Of a DNA stretch of 64,000 bases, positions 21,954-36,238 are shown piece after piece. Location: assembly GCA_033344895.1 (NCBI GenBank), contig JAWPMN010000001.1, forward strand, positions 4,038,001 through 4,102,000. Reading direction: 5' to 3'. Both the position numbers and the translations under genes were made by a program. The stretch's first letter is position 1. Every line of letters starts with the position of its first letter. This DNA is from Alphaproteobacteria bacterium (GTDB taxonomy: Bacteria; Pseudomonadota; Alphaproteobacteria; UBA8366; Aestuariispiraceae). A model generated the notes under the pieces. It did not search any database and had not been told where the DNA came from. It was given only the letters and a program-made list of their open reading frames with translations.

Positions 21954-24146
21954 TCACTCCTCATCCGCGATGAGGGTTGCATAGGTCCCGCCGGCCCCGA
22001 TCAGGGCGTCATGAGTGCCGCGTTCGACGATCCGGCCGCGAGACAGCACGATGATCTCGTCGCAGTCCCGGATCGTCGAAAGGCGATGGGCGATGATCAG
22101 GCAGGTGCAACCACGCCGCCGCAGATTGTCGTCGATCGCCTTCTCCGTCACCGTATCCAGTGCCGCGGTCGCTTCATCCAGGATCAGGATACGCGGGTCC
22201 TGTGTCAGGGCACGGGCGATTTCCAGACGCTGGCGCTGCCCGCCGGAGAAATTCGTCCCCCCTTCCTCCACATGGCATTCGAGCTGGCCGGACCGGCTCA
22301 TGACCTCGTCGCGAATCTCGGCATCTGCCAACGCCCGCGTCAGTTCCTGCGCGGAAACGTCATCGTCCCAGAGCGTTAGATTTTCACGGACAGTCCCATC
22401 GAACAGAAATATGTCCTGGTCGACATAGGCGACCGAGCCGGCATGGACGTGCCTCGGAATCCGTTCCAACGGATGTCCATCCACCGCGACAGTCCCGCTC
22501 CACGGCTCAAGAAGCCCGGCGGCGATCCGTCCGATCGTCGACTTGCCACTGCCCGACCCGCCGACCAGCGCGACACGGGACCCGGGCGCCACGGAAAGGG
22601 AAATTCCGTCCAGCAATGGCGGGTCGAGCGGGCTATACCCGAAAGTGACATCCGTCAGGACCAGTTCCCCATTCAGAACCGGCGGCCCCTGCCATTCGGA
22701 TTCCGGCGGAGACGGCGCCGGCATGGGATGCGCTTCGATATCGTCGAGCCGCGCAATGTCACCACGCACACGCTGCAACTGCCCGCCGAGATCGACCAGC
22801 GCGCCGATCGGTGTGACAAAACTGAGCATCAGAGACTGGATCGCAACGATCGAGCCGATGGACAGAGCCCCTTCCATCACGCGCATGCCGCCGATGCCCA
22901 GGATCGCCGCGGTGGTCAACGCACCGGTCAGAACCGGTGACGCGGTCAGCAAGACATTTGTCAGACCGATCACCCGCTGCGAATCCAGCATCTTCGCCTG
23001 ATATCCGGCCCAAGTCCGGAAGGCGTCGTTCTCCATGCCGCTGGTTTTCAGGTTTTCCGAAGAACGGATACTGCCGACCGTTGCCGCGGCGAGCTTGCCG
23101 CTATCCGCCATCAGCGCGCGATTAATATCCACCCGGCGGCGGGAAAGGACTTTCAGCAGGATCAGGTTTGCCGCTGCCAGGGTGAAACCGACCGCCGACA
23201 TCATCCAGTCATAGACGGCGATGGCCAGTCCGTAAAAGACGACCATCCCCAGATTCATCACATTTGTCGCCAGTTGCCCCGATAACAGCATGGCAATCCT
23301 GTCATTCGCCGCCATGCGGTCGGCCAGGTCGCCGGCATGCCGTTGAGCGAAGAATGCAGCAGGCAAATGGATCAACCGCCATAGGAAGCGGGACGCCATG
23401 GTCAGAGCCAGCTTGGTCTCCAGCCGCAGAAGGTAGCGTTGCTGCAACCAGGTGAAGGCGCCACGCAGCATTCCCGCTACGACGATCCCGATCACCAGCG
23501 GAACCAGCCAGCTTTCCTTCTCGTCGACCAGAATCTCATCGACGAATATCTTTGAGAAACCGGCAATCGCAATGCCGGGAATGACGAGAGCCAGACTGGC
23601 CAGAACGACGAAGGCGAGCGCCGAACCGGACGATCGGAGCCGCTGCGCCAGAATACCGATCAAGCTGGACTGCGCTCCTTGCTTCCGGAAGTCCGGACCG
23701 CGCTCGAATGCCAGTACCACACCCGTGTAATACTCACCGAACTCGTCCAGAGGAAGCCTGCGAGGGCCGGACGCGGGGTCATTGATATAGGCGTATCCCC
23801 GCCGTATCCCCTCAAACACCACGTAGTGATTGAAGTTCCAGTGGATAATGGAGGGGACCGGCAAGTCCGGCAGCGCTTTCGGTTCCTTCTTGAAGCCCTT
23901 GGCGGATAAACCGAAGCGCCGTGCGGCCTTCAAAAGGTTGCTGGCCTTGCTCCCGTCCCGGGTGACTCCCGCCGCCACCCGCAGCGCATCAATGGATTCC
24001 CAACGGCCGTAATAGCCGAGCACCATGGCAAGGCACGCAACGCCACATTCAACGCCGGTCATCTGCAGGACGGTCGGAGTCCGCGCCCGGTTGCCAAACA
24101 GCCGCCGCCGTGCATGGCCTTTGATGCTTTTCAGTGCTGTCGTCAT
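21954..24146 (-). CDS. NHLM-type C39-peptidase ABC transporter
   Basis: 730 aa, NHLM ABC1 (PCAT) family. The N-terminal C39 cysteine peptidase has Gln28 and Cys34 in LQMTGVECGVACLAMVLGYYG, the catalytic His in IIHWNFNHYVVFEG and the Asp in YINDPASGP. Transmembrane spans occupy about 165-450. Walker A is GGSGSGKSTIGRI (about 529), the signature FSGGQRQRLEIARAL, and Walker B ILILDEATAALD. It should cleave the leader and export the core peptide. It sits 3 bp after the HlyD stop and 6 bp before ABC2, so the three are one operon. Confidence 0.93.
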   Translation of the reverse strand: MTTALKSIKGHARRRLFGNRARTPTVLQMTGVECGVACLAMVLGYYGRWESIDALRVAAGVTRDGSKASNLLKAARRFGLSAKGFKKEPKALPDLPVPSIIHWNFNHYVVFEGIRRGYAYINDPASGPRRLPLDEFGEYYTGVVLAFERGPDFRKQGAQSSLIGILAQRLRSSGSALAFVVLASLALVIPGIAIAGFSKIFVDEILVDEKESWLVPLVIGIVVAGMLRGAFTWLQQRYLLRLETKLALTMASRFLWRLIHLPAAFFAQRHAGDLADRMAANDRIAMLLSGQLATNVMNLGMVVFYGLAIAVYDWMMSAVGFTLAAANLILLKVLSRRRVDINRALMADSGKLAAATVGSIRSSENLKTSGMENDAFRTWAGYQAKMLDSQRVIGLTNVLLTASPVLTGALTTAAILGIGGMRVMEGALSIGSIVAIQSLMLSFVTPIGALVDLGGQLQRVRGDIARLDDIEAHPMPAPSPPESEWQGPPVLNGELVLTDVTFGYSPLDPPLLDGISLSVAPGSRVALVGGSGSGKSTIGRIAAGLLEPWSGTVAVDGHPLERIPRHVHAGSVAYVDQDIFLFDGTVRENLTLWDDDVSAQELTRALADAEIRDEVMSRSGQLECHVEEGGTNFSGGQRQRLEIARALTQDPRILILDEATAALDTVTEKAIDDNLRRRGCTCLIIAHRLSTIRDCDEIIVLSRGRIVERGTHDALIGAGGTYATLIADEE

Positions 24147-24149
24147 CGA

Positions 24150-25427
24150 TCAGAAGGTCCAACCGGACCAGAATCCGATGCCGGTATGCCTGCGGATGAA
24201 TGGCACGATCAGATTGGCCGGCGGGTCCTCGGAAACCGTGATTTCCGCCTCCAGCGTCGTCCCGGCTGTGATCGGCACCGGCGGTCCCGTCCCCGATGTC
24301 CAGCGGTAGCCGCTGGTCGTCTGGACATCGGATATCAGGTCCACCCGTGCCGCATAGGGCGCACCTTCTTCGGAATAGGCCCCGACCAGTTGTTCGTTCT
24401 GCAGGATGCTCAACATGCCGTCCCGCGTCGCCGGATAGTCCGAAACCTCGATTACCCGACCCAGCAGGGCACCAAATTCCTCCTTCTTCACGGTTGACGG
24501 TGAAAGATGCACCGTCATGCCCGGCACGACGCGCTTCCCGTCCTTCGTTGGAACGAACATCATCGCCTGGAGAACTTGACCGTCCGTAGCAATGCTGGCG
24601 ATTGCGGTGCCGCGTTGGACCACGGCGCCTTCAAAAATCTTGAGTTCGGTCACCCGCCCCGATGTCGGTGCCAGGATGCGCGCTTCCTGGGTCAGCCGGG
24701 CGTCAAGTTCACGGACACGGTGTCGGGCCTCGTCGACCCGCAAATCGACTTCCGTCAGGCTCTTGGCGTGCGCCGTATGAAGGCTCAGCAATTCGGATTC
24801 AAGTTCCAGAATGCGATTCCGGGCGGTGCTGATATCCTGCAGGGACGCATTGTATTCGGCGGTCTTTGTGTCCAACTGGTCCCGTGTCGCATATCCTTTC
24901 GCCGCCAGTGCCGCCAGATTGTCCAAACCGGCCGACAGCGATTCCGCGCGCGCCTGCGCGGCCCGAATGATCCCTTCCTGCGCGGCCTTCTGCTTTTCAA
25001 AGTTGCCGGACTTCAGTTCAACTTCCTGATCGTAGTTCCTCTCCAGGACCGCGCGTTCGCGTAGCCTCCCGGCCAGAACCTCACGCGCGCTCTCGGCCTC
25101 CTGACGGAGTGCATCCTGTTCCAGGACGGCTATCTCCTGGCCTTTCACAACCACATCGTTCTGATCGACCAGCAGCGCGACGACGGTTCCGCCGGATGGC
25201 GCCATGGCATCGAGAATGCGCCCGCCCGAGGTCACAAAAATGCCCTTCCCCGAGACCTGGTCCGGAATCTGTCCGAAAATTCCCCATCCGACGATCCCCG
25301 TCAGCAGCATCAGCAAAGTCAACAGCGTGACCCAGCCGAACGGATCGGATACCGGCACGACCCGATCCAACTGCTCAGGCGATGAAAGCCTGTCCAACGC
25401 TGCCTGACGGAATATCTGCCGTGCCAT
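24150..25427 (-). CDS. NHLM-type HlyD-family membrane fusion protein
   Basis: 425 aa. The N-terminal FRQAALDRLSSPEQLDRVV segment is followed by one transmembrane span (WVTLLTLLMLLTGIVGWGIFG, about 30-52), a lipoyl-like half (ILDAMAPSGGTVVALLVDQNDVVVKGQEIAVLE), a long coiled-coil hairpin (about 110-235) and a C-terminal beta-barrel half (ILAPTSGRVTELKIFEGAVVQRG). It bridges the ABC pair to the outer envelope. ATG 25427 is supported by AAAGGTGG upstream; in-frame ATGs at 25463 and 25493 lack such a site. First gene of export system A, divergent from the AraC regulator. Confidence 0.9.
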   Translation of the reverse strand: MARQIFRQAALDRLSSPEQLDRVVPVSDPFGWVTLLTLLMLLTGIVGWGIFGQIPDQVSGKGIFVTSGGRILDAMAPSGGTVVALLVDQNDVVVKGQEIAVLEQDALRQEAESAREVLAGRLRERAVLERNYDQEVELKSGNFEKQKAAQEGIIRAAQARAESLSAGLDNLAALAAKGYATRDQLDTKTAEYNASLQDISTARNRILELESELLSLHTAHAKSLTEVDLRVDEARHRVRELDARLTQEARILAPTSGRVTELKIFEGAVVQRGTAIASIATDGQVLQAMMFVPTKDGKRVVPGMTVHLSPSTVKKEEFGALLGRVIEVSDYPATRDGMLSILQNEQLVGAYSEEGAPYAARVDLISDVQTTSGYRWTSGTGPPVPITAGTTLEAEITVSEDPPANLIVPFIRRHTGIGFWSGWTF

Positions 25428-25481
25428 GTGGTCCGCCACCTTTCGCGCCACATCCCGCGCCATGGTGATGAAAGCCGGGAT

Positions 25482-25500
25482 AACCAATTGCAAACTGGTT
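25482..25500. promoter_or_regulatory. inverted repeat between divergent hlyD-like and araC-like genes
   Basis: AACCA-N9-TGGTT lies 55 bp upstream of the HlyD start inside the 255-bp divergent intergenic region. It could be an operator for the AraC-type regulator or another factor. A near-match to the AACCGGTT element (AACCTGTT, 25631-25638) lies closer to the AraC start but lacks the GGNCATGG partner seen at the precursor genes. Function not demonstrated. Confidence 0.35.
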
Positions 25501-25682
25501 GGATTCTAGCATCGCAGGGGGTTCAGACGGTTGGCTGCACTTGTCTGAATGTCTCGAAAGCATTGCGTGAAGGTTTCGACGGGCAGCCCAACCGACGATA
25601 TCGGCCATTTCTTGAATATTCATGGCCAGGAACCTGTTAGGCTATCGATGAGCCGTGGAATCCATCACCCGGAATTGGGCGC

Positions 25683-26735
25683 ATGAATCAGATCGTTGAT
25701 GACAACAACCCCATTCCCATCCCACGGCTGAGCTTCGACACCCAGAGTTTCGGTGCGAACGATCGGCTGGATGCCTGGCGTGAGAATATGGGCGTCTTCT
25801 TCGATCTGTCGGCAGTCGATGGCGGGCGTCAGGAAAGCATCGCGCGGGCGCGGATCGACGCCTGCAGCATGGCCGGTACGGTTTTCGGTGTAACCACGGC
25901 CGACGCACAATTGTTCCAGCGTTCCGAACAGCGTGTCGCACGGGACGAGATGGAGCACTTCCTGATCCAGGTCTTTCTTCATGGCGGCGGCCGGACGCGG
26001 GACGGTGAGACGATTCAGGCCGGCGACATGCTGATCATCGACCTGGATCAGCCGCACAGCATGGTAACGTCGGATTTTTCCAACCTGACACTTGTTCTGC
26101 CGCGCGAATTGCATCCCGCACTATCGGATATCCTGACCCGTCTGCATGCCAGGCGTCTGCCCAGCACCAGCCCGGTCATCCGGCTTCTCGCCAGCCACCT
26201 CCAATCAATCTGGCATAATGTCGGCGATATGACGGTGCAGGATTCAGGCGCGACGCTTAAAGGTACGATCGGGCTGATGGAATGCTGGCTGTCGCAGAGA
26301 CAGTTCAGCGAGGATCTGTCGCCCGAGGTATCGTCCGGTCTCGCCAAATCCATCTTCCGTCACATTGACGCGCACATTGAAGAACCCCTTTCCCCTGAAC
26401 ATCTATGCGGTCTGTTCCGGATTTCCCGATCGCAGCTCTATCGTATCTTCAAGCCCTATGAGGGCGTATCCCGCTATGTTTGGGAACGACGCATGGTGAA
26501 GGCCATGCGCATGCTGTCGAACCCGATTTTCAGCGAACTCGCTATCGGAACCATCGCGTTCAAGTGCGGGTTCTCGACCGAACCGCATTTCAGCCGCTCC
26601 TTCAAGGAACGCTTCGGGATCAACCCAAGTGCCTTCCGCCGTGACGCGTTGGAAGCCTGTCTCAATGGCGGAAACGGAAGCGACCATGGCCAGCATTATC
26701 GCCACCGCTTCGCATCCTGGATCCGGGAACTCTGA
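25683..26735 (+). CDS. AraC-family transcriptional regulator
   Basis: 350 aa. The N-terminal 200 residues match the AraC-binding-like (AraC_binding_2) sensory fold (ERVARDEMEHFLIQVFLHGGGRTRDGETIQAGDMLIIDLDQPHSM region). The C-terminal 100 residues carry two HTHs: LCGLFRISRSQLYRIFKPYEGVSRYVWERRM and IGTIAFKCGFSTEPHFSRSFKERFGINPSAFRR. It lies directly upstream of the three precursor genes and divergent from export system A. It is the obvious candidate to bind the shared AACCGGTT-N10-GGNCATGG module (inference). The first copy of that module begins 3 bp after this gene's stop. Confidence 0.92.
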   Translation: MNQIVDDNNPIPIPRLSFDTQSFGANDRLDAWRENMGVFFDLSAVDGGRQESIARARIDACSMAGTVFGVTTADAQLFQRSEQRVARDEMEHFLIQVFLHGGGRTRDGETIQAGDMLIIDLDQPHSMVTSDFSNLTLVLPRELHPALSDILTRLHARRLPSTSPVIRLLASHLQSIWHNVGDMTVQDSGATLKGTIGLMECWLSQRQFSEDLSPEVSSGLAKSIFRHIDAHIEEPLSPEHLCGLFRISRSQLYRIFKPYEGVSRYVWERRMVKAMRMLSNPIFSELAIGTIAFKCGFSTEPHFSRSFKERFGINPSAFRRDALEACLNGGNGSDHGQHYRHRFASWIREL

Positions 26736-26738
26736 CAT

Positions 26739-26809
26739 AACCGGTTCTGGATGTTCGGGCATGGGCATAGCGCCGATCAGAGGCAATGGTGGCGGCGTCT
26801 AGGGAGGGC
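26739..26809 (+). promoter_or_regulatory. conserved promoter module of precursor gene 1
   Basis: AACCGGTT (26739-26746), then 10 nt (CTGGATGTTC), GGGCATGG (26757-26764), 37 nt, and GGGAGGGC (26802-26809). The start codon lies 56 nt after the last element. The same order and near-identical spacing recur upstream of precursors 2 and 3, and the first two blocks recur upstream of precursor 4 and the fused exporter. This points to a shared regulator site plus promoter. Confidence 0.7.
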
Positions 26810-26865
26810 AAAAACCCGGAGACGCGCGACATGGACTGTCCCCGGCCAAACAACTGGAGAAATTG

Positions 26866-27138
26866 ATGACCGATAACTCTGCCGGGCAAGAGAATGTCCT
26901 AAAATTCCGATCCCTGCTGGAAGCCAATCCGGCGCTTCAGGCCGATGTCGAGCAGCATGTCGGTAACGGAAGCTGGAACGCCACGGCCATCGTGCAGATC
27001 GGGCGCGATCACGGACTGGAGTTCACAGCAAACGACATCGAAACCGTCATGGATCAAGACGATGAACTGTCGGATTTCGAATTGGAGCTTGTGGCTGCTG
27101 CCGGCGGCCCTACGCAGTGCGGCAACGACGGCTTGTAA
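26866..27138 (+). CDS. Nif11-type leader peptide precursor 1
   Basis: 90 aa. The leader (about 1-77) matches the Nif11-like pattern: ENVLKFRSLLEANPALQADV, HVGNGSWNATAIVQIGRDHG, LEFTANDIETVMDQDDELSD, then FELELVAAA in place of the usual LExVAGG. The core after AAA is GGPTQCGNDGL, with a single Cys. ATG 26866 has GGAG 6 nt upstream; a TTG at 26863 is in frame but too close. The likely fate is cleavage at the Ala/Gly junction and export by the C39 ABC proteins nearby. The mature peptide and any modification are unknown. Confidence 0.85.
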   Translation: MTDNSAGQENVLKFRSLLEANPALQADVEQHVGNGSWNATAIVQIGRDHGLEFTANDIETVMDQDDELSDFELELVAAAGGPTQCGNDGL

Positions 27139-27230
27139 GTCAGGATAGTGGTTGTTCGGGCCCGGAAACCGATCCGCCGGCCCCTATTCCCCGACTGTTC
27201 GAATCGGCCCCGGGCCGGGCGCGACTAAGC

Positions 27231-27302
27231 AACGTCTTCTGGATGCTTGGACATGGTCGCTACATCTCCGAACAGCGATAATTGCCCTGCCATTGGGAGG
27301 GC
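27231..27302 (+). promoter_or_regulatory. conserved promoter module of precursor gene 2
   Basis: AACGTCTT (27231-27238, 5 of 8 matches to AACCGGTT), then CTGGATGCTT (8 of 10 identical to the spacer of module 1), GGACATGG (27249-27256), 38 nt, and GGGAGGGC (27295-27302). The start codon follows after 58 nt. The remaining upstream sequence from 27139 shows no gene. Confidence 0.65.
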
Positions 27303-27360
27303 GTGCGCCGATCGCGTCCGGCTTGGACGAACCTTCGGCCATTACATTGTGGAGAGAATG

Positions 27361-27630
27361 ATGACCGATCACGCCGCTGGGCATGCGAATGTTCTGAAAT
27401 TCCGGTCCCTGGTGGACTCCGATCCCGCGCTTCAGGCCGAGGTTTCGCAACATGTCGGGAACGGGACTTGGAACGCCGCGTCCATCGTCGATCTGGCGCA
27501 CACCAAGGGTCTGGATTTCAGTGCCGACGACATTGTCGATGTTCTGGACGAGGACGACGAGCTTTCCGACTTCGAACTGGAACTCGTGGCTGCCGCCAAC
27601 CCTGTTTCGTGCAACAATGACGGCGCATAA
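27361..27630 (+). CDS. Nif11-type leader peptide precursor 2
   Basis: 89 aa. Leader as in precursor 1 (ANVLKFRSLVDSDPALQAEV, HVGNGTWNAASIVDLAHTKG, DELSDFELELVAAA); the core is NPVSCNNDGA with one Cys. Two adjacent ATGs exist (27358, 27361); GGAG lies 6 nt before 27361, as in precursors 1 and 3. It is separated from its neighbours by over 200 bp on each side and has its own promoter module, so the precursors are probably transcribed individually rather than as one operon. Confidence 0.85.
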   Translation: MTDHAAGHANVLKFRSLVDSDPALQAEVSQHVGNGTWNAASIVDLAHTKGLDFSADDIVDVLDEDDELSDFELELVAAANPVSCNNDGA

Positions 27631-27713
27631 CGCCACATAGCTGGCCCTCGAGCCTCAGCGCCATCTCGGCAGGAGTTTTTTCAGAACTCCATCCGGGCTA
27701 CGACACGCCATGT

Positions 27714-27786
27714 AAACGGATCGGGACAACCGGGCATATTCTTTTCACGTGTCGGGACGACGATGATCCCTCTGTCACGGGAGGGC
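27714..27786 (+). promoter_or_regulatory. conserved promoter module of precursor gene 3 (weaker match)
   Basis: AAACGGAT (27714-27721, 6 of 8 to AACCGGTT), 10 nt, GGGCATAT (27732-27739, 2 mismatches to GGNCATGG), 39 nt, and a perfect GGGAGGGC (27779-27786), then 58 nt to the start codon. The spacing, rather than the first two blocks, is what carries this match. A small hairpin GGAGTT-N7-AACTCC (27672-27690) just upstream may end the previous transcript. Confidence 0.5.
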
Positions 27787-27844
27787 ATCAGTCGAATGTG
27801 ACCGTTTGGAAGCCGCAGCCGAATAGTGTGAACAGGAGAAGTCT

Positions 27845-28120
27845 ATGACTGATATCCCGGTTGGGCATTCAAACGTTCTGGAATTTCGGCCCTTAATTGA
27901 CGATTGCCAAAAATTGCAATCCGAGGTCGCGCGCCATGTCGGAAACGGCGGTTGGGATTCCGCCGCCATCGTTCGCATCGGCCATGCGCGGGGACTGGAC
28001 TTCACGGCGGCCGACATCCAGGCAGTGATGGAACAGGATGACGAACTCTCCGACTTCGGGCTGGAACTTGTCGCCGCAGCGGTGCCAATCAACTGCAACG
28101 ACCAGAATATTCGGGCCTAG
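27845..28120 (+). CDS. Nif11-type leader peptide precursor 3
   Basis: 91 aa, most divergent of the three adjacent copies: SNVLEFRPLIDDCQKLQSEV, HVGNGGWDSAAIVRIGHARG, DDELSDFGLELVAAA; core VPINCNDQNIRA. The core Cys and the Pro three residues before it are kept, and it is the only core with an Arg. It also has a Cys inside the leader (DDCQ). ATG 27845 has GGAG 6 nt upstream. It converges with the GNAT gene, 68 bp away. Confidence 0.85.
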   Translation: MTDIPVGHSNVLEFRPLIDDCQKLQSEVARHVGNGGWDSAAIVRIGHARGLDFTAADIQAVMEQDDELSDFGLELVAAAVPINCNDQNIRA

Positions 28121-28188
28121 CAATCCGAGTCCTGTGGAGCGGCGTCTCCGGCATGGCAGTTTGCAGCGGGAAACATCCTCTATGGCCC

Positions 28189-29118
28189 TTACAGCCCGTC
28201 CAGCACCCGCCGCCCCACAAAGCGTGAATCCGTCCATATGGTGAATGGCTTAAGCCGACGCTGCATGATCCCAATCATGCCCGGATTCTCCCCATAGGTC
28301 TCATAAACCGCGACTGACCTCGGTCCGTAAGCCTCGGCCTGAAAACGGCACACATCGTAGACGCCGGCGACCAGCCACCCCTTCCGTTGAAGCTCTGGCG
28401 CGACATAGCCATTGGTGTAGTGATAGTAGCCGTCCTCCGCATGGTTTTCGCCGAGCACCCAGCCGACGATCTCTCCGTGGCGTCGCAGCACGATCGAAAT
28501 TCGTGGGTCACAATGCGGTTCGAACCGGCGGTAATCGAAACGCCAGTCGTCTGACACGATGCTGTCGGCCCTTTCGCGATCCGCGTCGGTCAGGCTTTCC
28601 CACGGCGTTGCGGCGTAGCCCTGTCTCGCGAACCTGTGCAACATCGGTGCCCAGGACGGCCACGCCCGCTCAGTCCAGTCCGCATGACCGGCCAGTCGGA
28701 ATTCGACCAGTTTCGGTGCCGACCATCCGTGTGCCGCCAGAAAGGCCTCAAAGACATCCGGGTTTCGCATACGGTCAGAGTGGTAGGCAACGAGGCATGA
28801 CAGTCCCGCAGCGCCCGCCGCTTCCTGGGCCCGGTCCATCAGAGCATGCCCAATGCCCTGTCGCCGCTGGGCCCGTTGCACCATGATCGACAGGATCCGC
28901 ATTTCCGGTTCGGATTCCTTCGACGCCCGCTCCGGCCGCATCAGCACGAGCCCTGCCGGTCGGTCCCCCAAATAGGCGCCGAATGCTTCAACCCTGCTAT
29001 CGGAATTGTCAGGCGACGGATCCGAGGTGAGCAACTCTCGGAAGCGCGGGTATGTCATCGTGATGAAGTCCCTTGCCGTCGCGCCGGCAACTGGCTCGAT
29101 CCTAATCATGGCCGACAT
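28189..29118 (-). CDS. two-domain GNAT acyltransferase of the export locus
   Basis: 309 aa. The N-terminal GNAT domain (about 5-150) has a good acyl-CoA motif A, ILSIMVQRAQRRQGIGHALM. The C-terminal half (about 165-309) looks like a second, degenerate GNAT domain (NGYVAPELQRKGWLVAGVYDVCRFQ). ATG 29118 has GGGAGG 8 nt upstream and overlaps the HlyD-stub gene by 17 bp, so it is translationally coupled to export system B. It could acylate the peptide, as GNATs do in fatty-acylated RiPPs (selidamides), or act in self-protection. The cores lack Lys, so the acceptor is unclear. Confidence 0.78.
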   Translation of the reverse strand: MSAMIRIEPVAGATARDFITMTYPRFRELLTSDPSPDNSDSRVEAFGAYLGDRPAGLVLMRPERASKESEPEMRILSIMVQRAQRRQGIGHALMDRAQEAAGAAGLSCLVAYHSDRMRNPDVFEAFLAAHGWSAPKLVEFRLAGHADWTERAWPSWAPMLHRFARQGYAATPWESLTDADRERADSIVSDDWRFDYRRFEPHCDPRISIVLRRHGEIVGWVLGENHAEDGYYHYTNGYVAPELQRKGWLVAGVYDVCRFQAEAYGPRSVAVYETYGENPGMIGIMQRRLKPFTIWTDSRFVGRRVLDGL

Positions 29119-29341
29119 CGATCGCGCCTCCCGACCTTATTCCGCTGTCCTCTGCCATCAGGACTCCACCCGTGATCCATAGCAGCACTCCAAGGATCAG
29201 GGCCGCCTGCGCAACCCGCAGGACGCGCCACCGGCCGGGATGAAGGAGTTCCGGCATCCGGCCATCGCCGTGCACACCGATAAAGCGATCCACCGCCTGC
29301 TGACGAAACAGCGGGCGCTTTCGAAATTTCAGGGCATCCAT
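29102..29341 (-). CDS. HlyD stub: N-terminal anchor of an NHLM membrane fusion protein
   Basis: 79 aa. RPLFRQQAVDRF lines up with QIFRQAALDRL of the full-length HlyD at 24150-25427, followed by a similar-length linker and one transmembrane span (VAQAALILGVLLWITGGVLM). The protein then stops after about 15 residues: no lipoyl half, hairpin or barrel. ATG 29341 overlaps the fused exporter's stop by 13 bp, with AAAGGACG upstream, and its 3' end overlaps the GNAT start by 17 bp, so it looks like a maintained, coupled gene. No remnant of the missing domains is present downstream. Confidence 0.7.
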   Translation of the reverse strand: MDALKFRKRPLFRQQAVDRFIGVHGDGRMPELLHPGRWRVLRVAQAALILGVLLWITGGVLMAEDSGIRSGGAIDVGHD

Positions 29342-32300
29342 TCGGGCGTCCTTTCGCGGGTCTCTTCGGGAACGAGACTGGCACCGGGGCTGGTTGGCGC
29401 GCCATTTTCGGCAACGAGGCTACCTCCCTCCATGCGATACACGCGATCGGCCAGCCCAAGGGCGCTGGCACGGTGAGAGACCACAAGACAGCCAATACCA
29501 AGCGCCCGGATTGCAGCGAAGATCTCCAGTTGCTGAGCATCCGGCAGGGCATTAGTCGCTTCATCCAGGATCAGCAGTTTTGGCCGCCGGATAAGTCGAC
29601 GGGCGATCAGGATGCGTTGCTTCTGACCGGTCGAGATGCGTTCGGAATCGACAATGGTCTGTATCCCCATCGGCATCGCATCCAGATCGGGCTCCAACTG
29701 CGCCTGCCTGGCGGCTTCCCAAATTTCCGGAAGCGTGAAATCTTCATCACCGCCGATATGCCCCCGGATCGTCATGGCTTGTTCCAGTTCGTCGTCCTGC
29801 AACACCGCGCCGACCTCCTCCCTCCAGGCGGAAATATCGGTCGCAACGAGAGGCTTGCCTTCGCGCAGGATCTGCCCCTCATCCGGGGACAGGAAACCAA
29901 GTATCAGGCGCAACAGTGTGGATTTGCCGCAACCGGATGGACCGGTAAGCGCGACGATTTCTCCCGGCCCGATGTGGAGCGAGACGCCGTCGACCGCCCG
30001 CTGCGCGACGCCCGGATACCGGTAACCAACCTGTCGCAGATCAAGGCTGCCGACGTCGGTTCCAACCGCGGCCACCACCCCCGTCGGGGATGGAGGATCA
30101 ACGGGGGCATCAGCGAGCCTTTGCAGGCGCCGCAGAGCCGGACCGATCCGTATAATCTCGCACAGTGCCCCCGACACCTGCCAGGCCGCGATTGCGGCGA
30201 GCAGAAAGGCCAGTATCGATGCGCCCCCCTGGGTCGTTACGGGGCTGTTGCGCAGTAGTGTCAGGGCGAAGCATCCGACAACGGCAAACGCAAACCATTG
30301 CAGCGCGGCTTCAGCCACCGTCTCGCATCGTCTTACCTGATGGGCGGGTCCGCACTCCGTGTCGACCAATCTATCCCAGACGCCAAGTGCGGCTTCTGTC
30401 CGCCCGGACTGGCGGAGCTTGGCAGCACTCTTGGTCATTGCGGCCAGGAACACTCTACCGGCAGGACGCAACCGCAGGACGGCTGCAGCCGCGTCCGAGC
30501 GACACCAGGCCAGCAAGGCTGGAACGACGACAAACGGGGTCAATAGAAACGACGCAAGGCCGACGGATTGAGGCGTGAGGACGGCCACGACAATAAGGCA
30601 CGGGATAGCAGTGGCCCCCATAACGAGGCGGCGCGAAGCGCCATTGCGCAGAACGTTCAACAATTCCGGAATAGCCTGCAGGCTGCGGTTCACTTCCTGC
30701 GGCGCGCGGTTCCGAATGAAGAGCGGCTGAATCCGCATCAGATGCTGATAGAGGGCTGAATGGGCCGACAGTTCCAGAATGCCTTCAACCCGGTGCTGCG
30801 CTGATAGGCGTGTCGCCCCCAGGACAACGATCGCGACCGCCCAGAAGGCAATTCCGATGCCCCAATGACCCGGCGGTGTGCCCCCATCTGAAAGCAGGAA
30901 TAGCGCAGCGACAGGCCCACAAGCCAGCAACCCGGCAAGCAACAGATCTGACACAACGCCTTCGAACATCGCCTTCCCGACCGGTCGCAAAGGAAACCGG
31001 AAGAAATCGCGCGCTCGCGCAACTTTCTGTGCGAAACGCGGATAGATCCGATAGGCGGTCGGCATCAGTTCGGAGGCCCCATCGGACAGCAGAAACGTGC
31101 CGCCGTCGGGATCTTGAAAATACCCGGCCCCAGACGGATTCGGCAGGATCGCGACCGGTCGACCGTCCTGCTTGCGGAATCCGATCAGCGGACCGCAATC
31201 ACGCCGCCACCATTCCGCCACGACGAATCTCACCGGGCGCAAAATCAACTGATTGTGTCGCGCCAAGTCCATCAGGACGCTTCGCGCCGTCCCCTTCTGG
31301 GAGCAAGCGGGGATGGTGATGGCGGGAATACGAGATGCCTTGGCGGCCAGTTCGAAGACCCGGGTCAGATCGCCAGTTCGCAGGGTCATGGACGACGCAT
31401 GGCTCGTCACCCCTTGTTCTGACCCCGTGTAAGGATCCGGCCTGGATTCAGACAAGGGGACAGCAGTCATGGATGCGTCAGAAGCAACCCGCCCTTCGGA
31501 CAACAGCAGCGTTCGATCGCAGGCAGAGAGGGTCGACGCACGATGACTGATGACCAATACTGTCACGCCGCGTCTGCGAAGGTTCTCAAAGACGCGCCGT
31601 TCTGTTTCCGGATCGAGCCCGTCCGTCGCCTCATCGATCACGACGAGGCCGGGATTACGGGTCAGGATCCGCGCCAGTTCCAGCCTCTGCCTCTGCCCGC
31701 CGCTCAGATTGGCGGCACGCGGAGCTAACGGCGTGTCGAGGCCAGCCGGAAATCCAGCGATGACGTCCTCCAGGCAGGCATCCGCTACGGCAGCCTCCAA
31801 ATCCGACTCCGACACGGCATTGTCCCAAAGACACAGATTGTCGCGGATGGTGCCCGGCGCGAAGAACGGATGCTTGTCGAGCCAACCGATCCGGCGGGCC
31901 AGATCAGCCGTGCCGATGGCGCTGATCGGTCTATCGTCCAATTGCACCATACCGGCCCAGGGCCGGTGCAATCCGATCATCAACGCCGCCAGGGCCGACT
32001 TTCCACCGCCAGATGGCCCGGTCAGAGCGACCCATTCCCCGGGTCGCACGGTGACGGTAACAGCATCGAACAAGGGCGGCTTCACCGACGAGAAGCCAAA
32101 ACGCACCTCCCGGAGGCAGAGTGCCGCACCACGCGCCGGCCAGATCATCGGCGGGTGCGGTGCTTCAAACTCGTTACTGCAGTCGCTCAGATCGTCGAGC
32201 GGTGGCAGCATGAAATGCAAAGCATCAAGGCGGCCATGCAACCGGGCGAAGGCGCGCAACGGCGGCAGCAACAGGGTGATCAGAGCAAATGTGGCTATCA

Positions 32301-33519
32301 GAGTTCGCACAGCACCATCAGATGCCGGGGGAAATACCCAGAAGCAGATCAGCACCCCCGGCCACATCAGGAAGTATGTCAGGTCGGCCGATAGTTCTGC
32401 GCCCCCCTTCATCAGGCCGGTGCGCTGTCGGATATCGAGCCGGCGGGCACAAAGGCCCATCGCGTCCTTGAAGAACTCCCGGTCGCCGCCGCTGGTCTTG
32501 AAGGATTCGAAGTTCTCCAGGCTGTGCGACAGTTTCATCCAGTGCGCGTCACGATCGTCCTGTCGTACGCGCCCTTCACGACCGGCCGCCTTGTCCGCCG
32601 CAAGATTGAGCCGGAGAAACAGCCCGACCAGAAACGCAGCCAACACCGCGGAAGGCAAATGCACCACGGCGAGGGCGGAAAGCAACAAGGGAACTGCGAC
32701 CACGGCCGCTGCCGCCGGCAACAGAACTCGAAACAGCGTCTCGGCGAGCGCATCATGGCCCCCGATGCGCTGCGCGAGAACCGAATGTACCCGGTAGACG
32801 AAGAAGGCATGAGCCTGCGCCAGGACATGCCGGGCCATTCCTGAAAGCCGATCCCGGCAATATTCATCTTCGACCCGCGCCGATGCCCAGGCCGAAACGG
32901 CCAGTGCCATCCCCGAGCCCAAGAAACCCGCAATGCCAAGACCGATGAAACTCGCGTCTTCCGCGCCGGTCTGGCGGGCCAGGTCCAGCAGTGCCGGCAA
33001 CAACGGAATGGCCCAGATCGCCTGCGACACGAGGGCTGTCAGGATCAGACCGGGCGGGCAATGATTCAGTTGCCGCCGGATCCTGCGCCACAGCGTGATC
33101 GGGACACCGCCGGGACGAAATCTTTCCGAGGGAGAAAAGAACAGTGCGACGCCCGTGAAGCTCTCATCGAACTCTTCTCGCGACATTACGAAGCGCCCAA
33201 ATCCAGGATCGGCAAGCTGAACGTCTCGTTCGTCAATCCCCTCGACCACTGTGAAATGGATGAAATTGGTGAACACGACCAGGGGAAAACCGAAGCGTTG
33301 AAGCCGGTCCGGCTCCGTCCGGACGACCCGCGCGTCGAGGCCGAAATGGTCGGCGATGCGCAGCAGATCCTTGGCGTCGACGCAGTCGCGTGAAACGCCG
33401 GAAACCCTCCGCAACGTCTCCAGATCCACATGACGGCCGTAATGGGCGAGGATCATGCCCATGGATGCCAGTCCACATTCCGTGGATTGGGTTTGCAAAT
33501 GGATCGGAAACGGTCTCAC
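29329..33519 (-). CDS. fused NHLM exporter: C39 peptidase-ABC-ABC in one polypeptide
   Basis: About 1396 aa from GTG 33519. Domain order: C39 peptidase (Cys15 in LQTQSTECGLASMGMILAHYG, His88 in FTNFIHFTVVEG, Asp104 in QLADPGFG), membrane domain 1, ATPase 1 (Walker A GPSGGGKSA about 500, signature LSGGQRQRLELARIL, Walker B LVVIDEATDGLD). A linker leads to an ABC2-like half (AEWWRRDCGPLIGF, as in the 997-aa protein), membrane domain 2 and ATPase 2 (Walker A GPSGCGKST about 1192). ATPase 2 has a drifted signature ISTGQKQR and ATNALPD after Walker B. GTG 33519 has GGGGGAG 4 nt upstream and lies downstream of the shared promoter module; the frame is open back to 33777 but looks non-coding. No stop separates the halves. 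Confidence 0.85.
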   Translation of the reverse strand: MRPFPIHLQTQSTECGLASMGMILAHYGRHVDLETLRRVSGVSRDCVDAKDLLRIADHFGLDARVVRTEPDRLQRFGFPLVVFTNFIHFTVVEGIDERDVQLADPGFGRFVMSREEFDESFTGVALFFSPSERFRPGGVPITLWRRIRRQLNHCPPGLILTALVSQAIWAIPLLPALLDLARQTGAEDASFIGLGIAGFLGSGMALAVSAWASARVEDEYCRDRLSGMARHVLAQAHAFFVYRVHSVLAQRIGGHDALAETLFRVLLPAAAAVVAVPLLLSALAVVHLPSAVLAAFLVGLFLRLNLAADKAAGREGRVRQDDRDAHWMKLSHSLENFESFKTSGGDREFFKDAMGLCARRLDIRQRTGLMKGGAELSADLTYFLMWPGVLICFWVFPPASDGAVRTLIATFALITLLLPPLRAFARLHGRLDALHFMLPPLDDLSDCSNEFEAPHPPMIWPARGAALCLREVRFGFSSVKPPLFDAVTVTVRPGEWVALTGPSGGGKSALAALMIGLHRPWAGMVQLDDRPISAIGTADLARRIGWLDKHPFFAPGTIRDNLCLWDNAVSESDLEAAVADACLEDVIAGFPAGLDTPLAPRAANLSGGQRQRLELARILTRNPGLVVIDEATDGLDPETERRVFENLRRRGVTVLVISHRASTLSACDRTLLLSEGRVASDASMTAVPLSESRPDPYTGSEQGVTSHASSMTLRTGDLTRVFELAAKASRIPAITIPACSQKGTARSVLMDLARHNQLILRPVRFVVAEWWRRDCGPLIGFRKQDGRPVAILPNPSGAGYFQDPDGGTFLLSDGASELMPTAYRIYPRFAQKVARARDFFRFPLRPVGKAMFEGVVSDLLLAGLLACGPVAALFLLSDGGTPPGHWGIGIAFWAVAIVVLGATRLSAQHRVEGILELSAHSALYQHLMRIQPLFIRNRAPQEVNRSLQAIPELLNVLRNGASRRLVMGATAIPCLIVVAVLTPQSVGLASFLLTPFVVVPALLAWCRSDAAAAVLRLRPAGRVFLAAMTKSAAKLRQSGRTEAALGVWDRLVDTECGPAHQVRRCETVAEAALQWFAFAVVGCFALTLLRNSPVTTQGGASILAFLLAAIAAWQVSGALCEIIRIGPALRRLQRLADAPVDPPSPTGVVAAVGTDVGSLDLRQVGYRYPGVAQRAVDGVSLHIGPGEIVALTGPSGCGKSTLLRLILGFLSPDEGQILREGKPLVATDISAWREEVGAVLQDDELEQAMTIRGHIGGDEDFTLPEIWEAARQAQLEPDLDAMPMGIQTIVDSERISTGQKQRILIARRLIRRPKLLILDEATNALPDAQQLEIFAAIRALGIGCLVVSHRASALGLADRVYRMEGGSLVAENGAPTSPGASLVPEETRERTPEWMP

Positions 33520-33589
33520 CCAACTCCCCCGGACGCCTGATCCCACCTTGGAAAGAGACAGTGGATTCTCGCAAACGTCCGGCGAACAA

Positions 33590-33620
33590 CCATGACCGTC
33601 CGTACCAAACCGGTTGTCTG
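33590..33620 (-). promoter_or_regulatory. conserved promoter module of the fused exporter
   Basis: Read on the minus strand: CAGACAACCGGTT (33620-33608), 10 nt, GGTCATGG (33597-33590), then 70 nt to GTG 33519. The 13-mer is identical to the one upstream of precursor 4. This places the promoter inside the 272-bp region shared with yciB, and argues that translation of the exporter begins below 33590. Confidence 0.65.
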
Positions 33621-33791
33621 CCCATTCGGGTCGACCGCAAAACCGGCAAAACGGGGCTGGCCCCTGGATCCACCGAAGTACGGTCCCACAGTCATTGGAG
33701 GACATAGACCTCGACGCCCGGGTCCGGTAAGACCTTTCGACGGCAACCATCAGGGACATCCTCGGCGTTGCCATCATGAACTGGAACTGCC

Positions 33792-34367
33792 GTGACCTTT
33801 GCGCAGCGTTATCTCAATCGACGCATACTGCTGGAGTTGTTTCCGGCGGCTGTCTTCCTGGTCGTGAACTTCGCATGGGGTTTGATGCCCGCGACTGCGG
33901 CGGTGATGGCGGCAACGGCCCTCGCAGTCGTTGTTGGGCTCGCGATGGAGCGCCGTGTCCCGATCCTTGCGCTCGTAACGCTTGTTCTGGTCCTGGTGCT
34001 GGGGGGTGCGAGCCTGGCCCTTGATGATGCGGTCTTCATCAAGATCAAGCCAACCGTCGGAAAGTGCCTGTTCGCCGCCGCCCTCGGGATCGGTCTCTTC
34101 TTTCGGCCCAGCTTTCTCGCCCGGGCCCTTGACGGCCAGGTGGCGCTGAGCGACCGGGGGTGGCGAATCCTGACCATCTGCTGGATTGCGCTTGCACTGT
34201 CTCTGGCAGGATTGAACGAACTGATCTGGCGCACGCTGGATGTCGATATATGGGCAACATTCAAGGCCGGCATGACGCCGGTTTCCATCGTTGGCTACAT
34301 CGCAATCACACGTGTGATCGCACCGCGCTACTGGCAGGAGGCAACAGACAATCGTGCTGGCGGTTGA
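33792..34367 (+). CDS. yciB: YciB/IspZ-type inner-membrane septation protein
   Basis: 191 aa with five to six hydrophobic spans. It matches the YciB (intracellular septation protein A) pattern: LLELFPAAVFLVVNFAWGLMPATAAVMAAT, DDAVFIKIKPTVGKCLFAAALGIGL, LSDRGWRILTICWIALALSLAGLNELIWRTLDVDIWATFK. Length is typical for the family. Family members act in envelope and cell-division homeostasis. It starts at GTG 33792. It lies between the fused exporter (divergent) and precursor 4 (convergent), and has no obvious tie to peptide export. Confidence 0.9.
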   Translation: MTFAQRYLNRRILLELFPAAVFLVVNFAWGLMPATAAVMAATALAVVVGLAMERRVPILALVTLVLVLVLGGASLALDDAVFIKIKPTVGKCLFAAALGIGLFFRPSFLARALDGQVALSDRGWRILTICWIALALSLAGLNELIWRTLDVDIWATFKAGMTPVSIVGYIAITRVIAPRYWQEATDNRAGG

Positions 34368-34493
34368 CCCAGGCACGCCTGACAAAGCTTGAAAGGTTCT
34401 TACGCGGTCAGGTCAGCGGCCGATTGCGGTACCTCGACAGCACCCCGCCGGACGGTATTCAGCGGCCGGATTAAGTTGCGGCACGCCCGCTGG

Positions 34494-34766
34494 TTAATTC
34501 AAACCAGCATCGTTGCATTGAGTAGGCGCGGCGGCGGCAACGAGTTCGAGTTCAAAATCGGACAGTTCGTCGTCCTCATCCATTCCGCTTACAATATCCT
34601 CAACATCAAAATCGAATCCCATGCTCCTACCGATTGCAACAATCGCGGAAGAATCCCAGGTGCCATTGCCGACATGACGGGCGACTTCGTGCTGAAGTTT
34701 AGGATCGGAATCGACGAGTTGACGGAATTTCAGCACATTCTTTTGTGCACCATGCGAACGGGTCAT
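34494..34766 (-). CDS. Nif11-type leader peptide precursor 4
   Basis: 90 aa, detached from the other three and on the opposite strand. Leader KNVLKFRQLVDSDPKLQHEV, HVGNGTWDSSAIVAIGRSMG, EDDELSDFELELVAAA; core APTQCNDAGLN. It shares PTQC with precursor 1 and CND with precursor 3. ATG 34766 has GGAGGAGA upstream; a longer in-frame reading to 34901 runs through the promoter module. It converges with yciB (126 bp without a gene between them). Confidence 0.85.
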   Translation of the reverse strand: MTRSHGAQKNVLKFRQLVDSDPKLQHEVARHVGNGTWDSSAIVAIGRSMGFDFDVEDIVSGMDEDDELSDFELELVAAAAPTQCNDAGLN

Positions 34767-34861
34767 ATCAGTCTCCTCCACCAGGCTCTTGCTCGAAAGC
34801 GCCAATCCTTGGACGCCACCGCGCTTTAAAGACCATGTTCCCACTCGGTCGGAAATTGATG

Positions 34862-34892
34862 CCATGTCCAGACGCCCCCAACCGGTTGTCTG
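34862..34892 (-). promoter_or_regulatory. conserved promoter module of precursor gene 4
   Basis: Minus strand: CAGACAACCGGTT (34892-34880), 10 nt (GGGGGCGTCT), GGACATGG (34869-34862), then 95 nt to ATG 34766. The GGGAGGGC block of precursors 1-3 is not present; a looser GGTGGCG lies at about the same distance. The rest of the 322 bp up to the tRNA shows no gene. Confidence 0.65.
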
Positions 34893-35088
34893 ACCGTCCA
34901 AAAATCCGCAAACTCCGCCCCATAAAGGGCAATCATTTCACTGCTTCCCTTATCTGGTGCGGAGCATCTGCAGCCGAAACCAATTTTGTCTCGCTCCGGC
35001 CATTGCCGGCAATGACGGAACAAAATCCAATGACCAAACTTGGAAGGGCTTGAAAGCGTTGGCTGACCGCCAGCCGCACAAAAAAGCT

Positions 35089-35165
35089 TGGCGGCCCCGG
35101 CAGGACTCGAACCTGCAACCATCCGCTTAGAAGGCGGGTGCTCTATCCAGTTGAGCTACGGGGCC
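35089..35165 (-). tRNA. tRNA-Arg (anticodon TCT)
   Basis: A 77-nt cloverleaf including an encoded CCA. Acceptor arms GGCCCCG/CGGGGCC, discriminator G, anticodon stem CCGCC-TTCTAAG-CGG region with TCT, and T-arm GGTTCGAGTCC. It reads on the minus strand. Confidence 0.95.
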
Positions 35166-35214
35166 GGATACCGCGGCAGGAGCTCTTAGTCTCGGCCCCG
35201 CGGTTGGTCAACGG

Positions 35215-35520
35215 TCAATGGGTCCAGGGACGCTTGCGGCCATTCGAGAAGTTGTCCGCATAGGCCTTCGGCTTGATGCGGCGGTCCTTCGGCTTCTCGA
35301 CGGTATAGGCGTAGCCGTGCTTTTCGGCATAGGCGATTGCCTCTTCGGCGGTATCGAAGCTCAGACGCACCTGCTTGCGCGTATCCGCGGAGCCAACCCA
35401 TCCCATCAATGCGTCCGGACGCCCTGGATCGGCAGGTTCGAATTCCAGAATCCAATCCCGGGTCTTGCCGCGCCCGGATTGCATAGCGGTTTTCGCCGGT
35501 TTGAAGATCCTGACTTCCAT
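35215..35520 (-). CDS. complex I accessory subunit, ETC/NDUFS4-like
   Basis: 101 aa. The N-terminus MEVRIFKPAKTAMQSG and the conserved WILEFEP, MGWVGSADTRKQVRLSFDTAEEAIAYAEKHGYAY and PKAYADNF segments match the ETC complex I subunit conserved region (mitochondrial NDUFS4 family). This is found as a stand-alone protein in alphaproteobacteria and associated with NADH dehydrogenase. ATG 35520 has GGGAGGGGA upstream; it lies 50 bp from tRNA-Arg on the same strand. Confidence 0.93.
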   Translation of the reverse strand: MEVRIFKPAKTAMQSGRGKTRDWILEFEPADPGRPDALMGWVGSADTRKQVRLSFDTAEEAIAYAEKHGYAYTVEKPKDRRIKPKAYADNFSNGRKRPWTH

Positions 35521-35716
35521 TGTCCCCTCCCTAGCGAGGCCGTTTTCCGTGTCGGATGGGGTCATACCACGCTTCGACTGGAACATTCCAGCCCGCAGCA
35601 CAGTTCAAATTCACCTTAATAACCGGCGTGACGTTATCGAGGGTCATCCCCCTGGCCGCCCCCGTCTCGGATCATTTTGTGGTTCTCGACAACGCAACTG
35701 GACCGAAGGGGTACGG

Positions 35717-36238
35717 ATGATTAAAAATTCAGAAAGCGTCTTTTCGCCCCCAATGGCACAAGCACGGTCTGTCCGAATGGTTGATATGCTTCAGAAATCG
35801 AAATGCCGCGTCCTGGTCGTCGATGACAACGCGCCGGTGAGAATGCTGCTTCGCGAGCTGCTGCGGAACGAAGGCGTTGCGTCCATTTCGGAGGCGGAGA
35901 ATGGCGTTGAAGCCCTCGCCCATCTGGAGGCACGGCCTTTCGACATCGTGTTCGCCGATCTGGAAATGCCGACGATGGGCGGCATGGAGCTCATGCGAAC
36001 CGTCCGGGAAGAAAAGATTATCTATAACAGCCAGATACCTTTCGTCTTCGTCACGGCGCATGCCAATCCGGACCTTGTCGCCATGGCACGTAGCCTGGGC
36101 GTCGCCGGGTATCTGGTGAAGCCGATCTCGTCGGGACAACTCCGTGCCAAACTGGACCAGGCCCTGCGCATTGCGCAGAAGCTTATGGATCAGGATGCCC
36201 GGCCGTCGAAGGCCGCCGATACCTGGGATCTGAAATAG
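35717..36238 (+). CDS. single-domain response regulator (CheY-like)
   Basis: 173 aa. One receiver domain (about 30-155): CRVLVVDDNAPVRMLL with the acidic pair, the phosphoacceptor Asp in VFADLEMPTMGGMELM, FVFVTAHAN (switch Thr) and YLVKPIS (Lys). There is no output domain; a 28-residue N-terminal extension and a short C-terminal tail flank it. It probably acts by protein-protein contacts with a histidine kinase partner encoded elsewhere. ATG 35717 has GAAGGGG upstream. Confidence 0.9.
   Translation: MIKNSESVFSPPMAQARSVRMVDMLQKSKCRVLVVDDNAPVRMLLRELLRNEGVASISEAENGVEALAHLEARPFDIVFADLEMPTMGGMELMRTVREEKIIYNSQIPFVFVTAHANPDLVAMARSLGVAGYLVKPISSGQLRAKLDQALRIAQKLMDQDARPSKAADTWDLK

What the first reader, a model, noticed from the sequence alone, without database searches (positions are those of the whole stretch)
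26739..34892. Shared promoter module links four precursor genes and the fused exporter
Upstream of precursors 1-4 and of the fused exporter I find AACCGGTT or a variant, exactly 10 nt, then GGNCATGG. Exact first block at precursors 1 and 4 and the exporter; 5/8 at precursor 2, 6/8 at precursor 3. The 13-mer CAGACAACCGGTT is identical at 33608-33620 and 34880-34892. Precursors 1-3 add GGGAGGGC 37-39 nt further on, then 56-58 nt to ATG. The genes lie on both strands and as far as 8 kb apart, so common regulation is the likely cause. The AraC protein at 25683 is the natural candidate to bind two sites spaced like this.
Basis: seen in the sequence. Interest (0 to 1): 0.87.

Follow-up and report, generated by a model that had tools for sequence, protein, structure and literature searches.

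The report
Shared switch of a peptide-secretion cluster
The genes for four small secreted-peptide precursors and for one of their exporters carry the same 26-base control element, kept in a sister species, so they are probably switched on together by the regulator encoded next to them; it is a sound but fairly ordinary example of bacterial gene control.

Summary
AACCGGTT-N10-GGNCATGG occurs exactly 4 times in the 4.64-Mb genome; 3 copies lie in this cluster and the 4th inside open frames. About 0.01 is expected, and spacers of 9 or 11 give no exact match. A sister species with the same cluster carries imperfect copies before 3 of its 4 precursor genes, while flanking DNA has drifted to 28-30% mean identity. 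Motif discovery on the 8 site-bearing upstream regions recovers the same 8 places, far above shuffled sets. Consensus: AAnCnnnTnKGn6YGGnCATnG. Two sites (precursor 3; sister P5) are weak. A -10-like hexamer (3/6 or better to TATAAT) lies 17-22 nt downstream at 7 of 8 sites, which would put GGnCAT at the -35 region, as for an AraC-type activator. The AraC-family protein is the only one of the shared cluster genes with a recognised DNA-binding domain, and close copies were found only in these two species. Binding is not shown. The exporter probably starts at GTG 33519, so its site lies upstream. New member of a known kind: a cluster-specific regulon of a Nif11-type peptide system.

The parts
26739..26764 (+). 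Element at precursor 1: AACCGGTT-N10-GGGCATGG, 3 nt after the araC stop codon, 101 nt before ATG
27231..27256 (+). Element at precursor 2: AACGTCTT-N10-GGACATGG, 104 nt before ATG
   Evidence: leave-one-out score 24.7, reached by 0 of 910 random segments
27714..27739 (+). Element at precursor 3 (weak): AAACGGAT-N10-GGGCATAT, 105 nt before ATG
   Evidence: leave-one-out score 9.25, reached by 3 of 910 random 223-nt segments, 0 of 910 in the fixed position window
33590..33615 (-). Element at fused exporter: AACCGGTT-N10-GGTCATGG, 70 nt before GTG 33519
34862..34887 (-). Element at precursor 4: AACCGGTT-N10-GGACATGG, 95 nt before ATG
26782..26787 (+). -10-like GGCAAT, P1 (poor, 3/6)
27277..27282 (+). 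-10-like GATAAT, P2 (5/6)
27762..27767 (+). -10-like GATGAT, P3 (4/6)
34835..34840 (-). -10-like GAACAT, P4 (poor, 3/6)
33565..33570 (-). -10-like GAGAAT, exporter (4/6)
26802..26809 (+). GGGAGGGC, P1 (would be early transcribed sequence)
   Evidence: transcript start inferred
27295..27302 (+). GGGAGGGC, P2
27779..27786 (+). GGGAGGGC, P3
25683..26735 (+). AraC-family regulator, 350 aa (AraC_binding_2 + HTH_18); candidate activator
   Evidence: close copies found only in this genome and the sister species
26866..27138 (+). Precursor 1, Nif11-like leader
   Evidence: TIGR03798 34.8 bits, over the cut-off of 32.3
27361..27630 (+). Precursor 2, Nif11-like leader
   Evidence: TIGR03798 26.7 bits, below cut-off; aligned
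27845..28120 (+). Precursor 3, Nif11-like leader
   Evidence: TIGR03798 21.0 bits, below cut-off; aligned
34494..34766 (-). Precursor 4, Nif11-like leader
   Evidence: TIGR03798 38.2 bits, over cut-off
29329..33519 (-). Fused exporter (C39 peptidase-ABC plus second ABC half), proposed start GTG 33519
   Evidence: 64% identical to the sister protein
24150..25493 (-). NHLM HlyD-type secretion protein; first gene before ABC1 and ABC2 on the same strand
   Evidence: TIGR03794, 296.5 bits
25539..25564 (-). Weak, displaced look-alike of the element upstream of hlyD; not claimed as a site
   Evidence: score 8.5; 6 of 455 random 189-bp segments reach it; the equivalent place in the sister species scores 8.7

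Best explanation
The 26-bp element is the operator part of an activator-dependent promoter that defines a small cluster-specific regulon: the transcription units of four Nif11-type precursors and of the fused exporter. The AraC/XylS-type protein encoded at 25683 most likely binds it, with GGnCAT as the promoter-proximal contact lying against or over the -35 region, and AAnCnnnT as the distal contact about two helical turns upstream. RNA polymerase then starts from a GAnnAT-type -10 hexamer about 20 bp downstream, giving a leader of roughly 60-70 nt at the precursors and about 40 nt at the exporter. Shown here: the sites, their rarity in perfect form, their conservation against a drifted background, their similar distance to start codons, and the common -10-like hexamer. 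Inferred: that AraC is the binder, that it activates, the transcript starts, the operon structure, and the inducing signal (unknown).
For: 3 of 4 exact genome matches fall in one 8.2-kb stretch, with 0.010 expected genome-wide and 0 exact for spacers of 9 or 11. EM (width fixed at 26) on 8 upstream regions finds the same 8 places, log-likelihood ratio 124.7 against 66.8 +/- 3.6 in 20 shuffled sets; a less redundant set of 5 gives 77.3 against 56.1 +/- 2.1 in 20. Mean pairwise identity is 0.68 and 0.81 in the blocks, 0.48 in the spacer and 0.29-0.30 in the flanks. The 7 precursor sites begin 121-131 nt before ATG. Best matches to TATAAT peak at offsets 17-22 (sum 29; 1 of 1000 shuffled sets reaches that maximum). 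In the sister species the two genes without a site (P3, exporter) lie 111 and 104 bp behind another precursor on the same strand. AraC is 89% identical in the two species; at E 1e-30 it matches 3 of 14 genomes of the family, the third at 30% identity, at E 1e-45 only the window's own of 385 drawn from the class, and a pattern-based scan of genome contigs gave 1 locus, the sister. The other conserved regulator-like gene has a cNMP-binding domain and no recognised HTH. GGnCA resembles the GGCCA end of the VqsM and CdpR sites and the GGTA box B of XylS, all AraC-family (passages of PMC8151288 and PMC5481539).
Against: No binding or transcript data. Sites at P3 and sister P5 are weak: a profile from this genome alone does not rank P5 in the top 10 of the 32 kb of the sister species, and one from the sister alone does not rank P3 in the top 10 of the window and puts the exporter site sixth, below two non-sites. 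The self-comparison of the profile shows no 21-bp direct repeat among its ten best, which a classical XylS site would show. Sister P5 has no -10-like hexamer of 3/6 or better, and those of P1 and P4 are only 3/6. Only two species carry the system, so conservation rests on one comparison. The hlyD export operon has only a weak look-alike and araC itself no site.
Confidence: 0.68

Rival explanations
1. The element is a real shared operator or promoter, but another factor reads it: an ECF-type sigma factor (AACC as -35, NCATGG as -10) or a regulator encoded elsewhere in the genome.
For: AACC-N16-NCATGG has about the spacing of an ECF promoter (recalled, not tested); the -10-like hexamer evidence is moderate; AraC binding is untested. 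I did not search the genome for candidate sigma factors.
Against: Of the genes shared by the two clusters only AraC has a recognised DNA-binding domain, and close copies of it were found only in the species with the cluster. A -10-like hexamer downstream of the element speaks against the element being the -10 itself.
Confidence: 0.22
2. The similarity is residue of gene duplication: upstream DNA was copied with the precursor genes and has no function of its own.
For: P1, P2 and the first two sister genes share the spacer (8-9 of 10), and P1-P3 share GGGAGGGC, so some copying did occur.
Against: The exporter is not a precursor homologue yet has a perfect site. P4 and exporter sites share 8/8 and 7/8 in the blocks but 4/10 in the spacer, 12/50 downstream and 22/60 upstream. 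Blocks are kept while flanks are at 28-30% mean identity.
Confidence: 0.05
3. The conserved blocks act in the RNA, as a leader element or riboswitch-like structure.
For: The element lies about 100 nt before ATG at the precursors and a G-rich block follows it.
Against: In 24000-36000 no Rfam match up to E = 1 except a tRNA and one weak match over the same tRNA. The six leaders folded, of eight, fold no better than shuffles (z from -1.6 to +0.9); these stretches begin downstream of the element.
Confidence: 0.04
4. Chance similarity picked out by eye.
For: At <=2 mismatches the genome-wide density is no higher than for wrong spacers.
Against: Perfect copies, EM and the sister species.
Confidence: 0.01

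Closest known systems
XylS / Pm promoter (AraC-XylS family activator)
   Same: GG-containing box B; activator-dependent promoter whose activator and RNA polymerase sites overlap (PMC5481539, passages, the overlap from a title in its reference list)
   Different: XylS sites are two 15-bp direct repeats of TGCA-N6-GGTA; here no 21-bp direct repeat was found and block 1 is AAnCnnnT
VqsM and CdpR sites of Pseudomonas aeruginosa (AraC family)
   Same: GGATSNNNTYGGCCA and RGWYNNNWNCGGCCA resemble GGATG-N3-GGnCAT at four of the eight sites (consensi from PMC8151288, passage)
   Different: the gap between the two parts is 3 here and 5 in VqsM; the other four sites lack GGATG
CuxR of Sinorhizobium meliloti (PDB 5NLA)
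   Same: closest solved relative of the AraC protein by sequence over residues 8-323, E = 2.4e-24; CuxR is a c-di-GMP-responsive activator (passages of PMC7499043 and PMC12538310)
   Different: distant relative; no test of c-di-GMP binding here; the CuxR paper itself is not held
Nif11/NHLP precursor clusters with TIGR03794/03796/03797 exporters (PMC2887384, passages)
   Same: Nif11-type leaders, HlyD-like protein, cleaving and non-cleaving ABC exporters, several precursors in one genome
   Different: that paper's main text does not contain 'promoter' or 'AraC'; here the precursors and a second, fused exporter share an operator-like element

Membership tests
AraC/XylS-family transcriptional regulator (protein at 25683) | C-terminal helix-turn-helix region of the AraC type | tested here: met
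   HTH_18 58.5 bits (cut-off 33.6), HTH_AraC 37.1 (26.6), AraC_binding_2 36.3 (27)
AraC-activated promoter with the operator at the -35 region | operator next to or over the -35 region at a near-fixed distance from a -10 hexamer | tested here: inconclusive
   -10-like hexamers at offsets 17-22 after the element at 7 of 8 sites; 1 of 1000 shuffled sets reaches the observed maximum; no transcript start known
AraC-activated promoter with the operator at the -35 region | binding of the AraC-family protein to the element | not testable with these tools
   needs purified protein
XylS-type operator | two direct repeats about 21 bp apart | tested here: not met
   profile self-comparison shows no 21-bp direct repeat among its ten best
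Nif11-leader precursor (TIGR03798) | score over the family cut-off of 32.3 bits | tested here: inconclusive
   P1 34.8 and P4 38.2 pass; P2 26.7 and P3 21.0 do not, but align with them over the full length
NHLM exporter (TIGR03796 + TIGR03797), fused protein | scores over the equivalog cut-offs | tested here: not met
   fused exporter 596.5 (cut-off 853.3) and 496.1 (cut-off 709.4), scanned from ATG 33777; the separate ABC1 979.5 and ABC2 795.8 pass. The fused protein is a diverged relative, not a member by cut-off

The most novel reading that the evidence does not exclude
A self-contained peptide-secretion regulon that grows by promoter capture: an AraC-type sensor, perhaps responding to c-di-GMP as its relative CuxR does or to the exported peptide, commands every unit that carries the 26-bp module, and the fused exporter acquired its own copy after ispA came to lie between it and the neighbouring precursor gene.
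Probability: 0.12. Interest if true: 0.6.

Novelty: new member of a known kind. Interest (0 to 1): 0.42.

Why it matters
It groups four short precursor genes (two of them below the family cut-off) and a diverged fused exporter into one regulated system by evidence independent of protein similarity, and gives a concrete operator and a candidate activator with which the cluster could be switched on in the laboratory. In the listings of four library searches (20 of 64, 12 of 24, 3 of 3 and 0 papers shown) I saw no title or abstract reporting an AraC-type operator in a Nif11/NHLM cluster; the papers themselves were not read for this beyond PMC2887384 (passages).

Tried and rejected
Sigma-70 consensus scan of 24000-36000: 0 sites against 3.0 in shuffles, uninformative. 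RNA element: not supported. Fused exporter on plasmids: no match at 1e-60. AraC relatives on plasmids: 102 records, all under 60% identity, the 8 listed at 29.5-34.1%; not followed. The 30%-identical AraC of G007 has in the 15 kb taken around it no other match to the queried cluster proteins at E 0.01 except a short cNMP hit. Stretches taken from three other NHLM loci (G008, G010, G055) carry no match to the refined pattern, and no precursor of this family was found in G008 or G010 (G055 was not in that search). The precursor profile matches 2 of 43 genomes of the order, this one and the sister.

Rows left out: 12 upstream regions were taken and the hlyD side of both species. The EM was given 8 of the 12, chosen after the pattern was known, with the width fixed at 26; the four left out (sister P3, sister exporter, both araC) have no site (best profile scores -3.2, -1.5, -4.1, -12.1). 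In single-base shuffles of each region (500 each) the best spacer-10 match is reached 0 times at P1, P4, exporter and sister P2, 1 at sister P1, 5 at P2, 18 at sister P5, 21 at P3, 115 at sister P3, and 283 or more at the other three. The refined consensus was derived from these same sites, so its genome counts are not independent. Leave-one-out profiles leave out one site, not its close relatives. The -10 test used single-base shuffles of the first 61 nt. Random segments come from 36-63.7 kb of the window.
Full report
What was checked. All five sites are present at the stated places. Three are perfect. In the single-contig 4.64-Mb genome there are four perfect copies; the fourth is inside stop-free frames of 332 and 643 codons. 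From base composition 0.010 perfect copies are expected; three of four random positions would fall in a span of this size with probability about 2e-8, which is only indicative because the sites themselves set the span. Changing the spacer to 9 or 11 removes all perfect matches: 0 of 48 and 0 of 30 hits at up to two mismatches, against 4 of 27 for spacer 10. With two mismatches allowed, spacer 10 is no commoner than the wrong spacers, so the two imperfect sites need other support.

Context. The cluster is a Nif11-type peptide system: precursors with TIGR03798-like leaders, a standard NHLM export set (HlyD, cleaving ABC1, ABC2, then a cNMP-binding protein) and a second exporter in which both ABC halves are fused. 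The AraC-family gene lies between the export operon, which diverges from it, and precursor 1. The exporter ORF was listed from ATG 33777, which would place its site inside the gene; the C39 domain begins at residue 91 of that reading and the sister ORF begins with ATG at the residue equivalent to GTG 33519, with GGGGGAG just upstream, so I take GTG 33519 as the start.

Sister species. One other genome of the same genus (G004) holds the same cluster: ABC1 94%, AraC 89%, HlyD 84%, ABC2 81%, fused exporter 64%. It appears to be CP051228.1 of the named collection, titled Mesoflavibacter (same coordinates, listed length differing by 100). It has four precursors. Three have the element at a similar distance from ATG: AACCTGTT-N10-GGGCATTG, AAGCCATT-N10-GGACATGG, AATCGAAT-N10-GGACATTG. 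Its remaining precursor and its exporter have none; they lie 111 and 104 bp behind another precursor on the same strand, so they are probably read from that gene's promoter (inference). In the window's genome an ispA-family gene (33792-34367) lies between precursor 4 and the exporter, and there the exporter has its own perfect element.

Statistics. EM motif discovery (width 26, started from every 26-mer of the input) on the eight site-bearing upstream regions, of twelve taken, returns the eight sites in register; score 124.7 against 66.8 +/- 3.6 (maximum 72.9) in 20 shuffled sets. With five less related regions it is 77.3 against 56.1 +/- 2.1 (maximum 60.6) in 20. Leave-one-out profile scores are 20 or more for six sites, reached by none of 910 random segments; P3 scores 9.25 (3 of 910 reach it; 0 of 910 in the fixed position window) and sister P5 10.4 (0 of 910). 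Across species the test is harder: the sister-only profile puts P2, P1 and P4 first to third in the window, the exporter sixth, and P3 outside the top ten; the window-only profile puts sister P1 and P2 first and second and P5 outside the top ten. Fully invariant columns are AA (1-2), T (8), G (11), GG (19-20) and CAT (22-24). Mean pairwise identity is 0.68 and 0.81 in the blocks, 0.48 in the spacer and 0.29-0.30 in the flanks. This pattern is what selection on a binding site leaves, and argues against plain duplication.

Refined pattern in the genus. AANCNNNTNKGNNNNNNYGGNCATNG matches 4 places in this genome (3 in the cluster), 4 in the sister (3 in the cluster), and 3, 3, 1 and 0 in four congeners; the backward-read control gives 1 in all six. 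In those four no AraC match at E 1e-30 and no precursor match was found. All 9 matches outside the clusters overlap stop-free frames of at least 324 codons; that these frames are genes was not tested. The pattern was derived from the sites, so this only describes how rare it is, and it misses P2 and P3.

Promoter architecture. Best matches to TATAAT in the 60 nt after the element peak at 17-22 nt downstream (sum over eight sites 29; shuffled mean at that place 19.2 +/- 2.5; 1 of 1000 shuffled sets reaches the maximum anywhere), with GATAAT, GATGAT, GATGAT, GATAGT, GAGAAT, GAACAT and GGCAAT; the eighth, sister P5, has none with 3 of 6 matches, and the last two named have only 3. A -35 box would then fall on or just after the end of the element; the sigma-70 scan finds no -35/-10 pair in the region. 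Lying upstream of or over the -35 sequence is described as the position preferred by AraC-family activators in PMC8151288 (passages). GGGAGGGC of precursors 1-3 would then be early transcribed sequence; it occurs nowhere else in the window and may be a relic of duplication, since the sister genes have only G-rich sequence there.

Who binds. Of the genes shared by the two clusters, only the AraC protein has a recognised DNA-binding domain; for the cNMP-binding protein at 18384-18932 none was found. Close copies of the AraC protein were found only in the two species. GGnCA resembles the second halves of the VqsM, CdpR and XylS sites. Its nearest solved relative by sequence is 5NLA, which PMC7499043 identifies as CuxR. 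I did not find the 21-bp direct repeat expected of a XylS-type site. The hlyD promoter has a weak look-alike in both species (8.5 and 8.7; 6 of 455 random segments reach 8.5), followed by a conserved TAGAAT about ten bases further away than the hexamers of the other promoters; I list it as a lead only.

Verdict. As a phenomenon it is a cluster-specific regulon of a familiar type in a little-studied peptide system, so the interest is moderate.

Noticed in passing
window 25539-25564 (-) and L031 9777-9802 (-): Weak look-alike of the element upstream of hlyD in both species, with conserved CAGACAAGTG and a conserved TAGAATC about 30 nt further on.
   Followed up: partly
window 29329-33519 (-); L056 (G055): Fused exporter carrying both NHLM ABC halves beside a standard separate NHLM pair; another exporter in one 1489-aa open frame, about 25% identical, exists in a distant genome of the class.
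   Followed up: partly
window 26866-28120, 34494-34766: Precursor cores of roughly ten residues follow a conserved LVAAA without a double glycine and hold one invariant Cys; among the proteins scanned here the only candidate tailoring enzyme is an acetyltransferase-type protein at 28189-29118.
   Followed up: no
window 18384-18932 (-): cNMP-binding protein without a recognised HTH, next to ABC2; also next to ABC2 in the sister species, G008 and G010.
   Followed up: partly
window 33792-34367 (+): ispA-family gene lies between precursor 4 and the exporter; no counterpart in the 32 kb taken from the sister species.
   Followed up: no
window 14773-18162 (-): 1129-aa protein with a Vps62 match and a sub-threshold ricin-type lectin match; no counterpart in the 32 kb taken from the sister species.
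   Followed up: no
L033 (CP051228.1): Record titled Mesoflavibacter (a Bacteroidota name, recalled) holds the sister-species cluster, so the title looks wrong.
   Followed up: no
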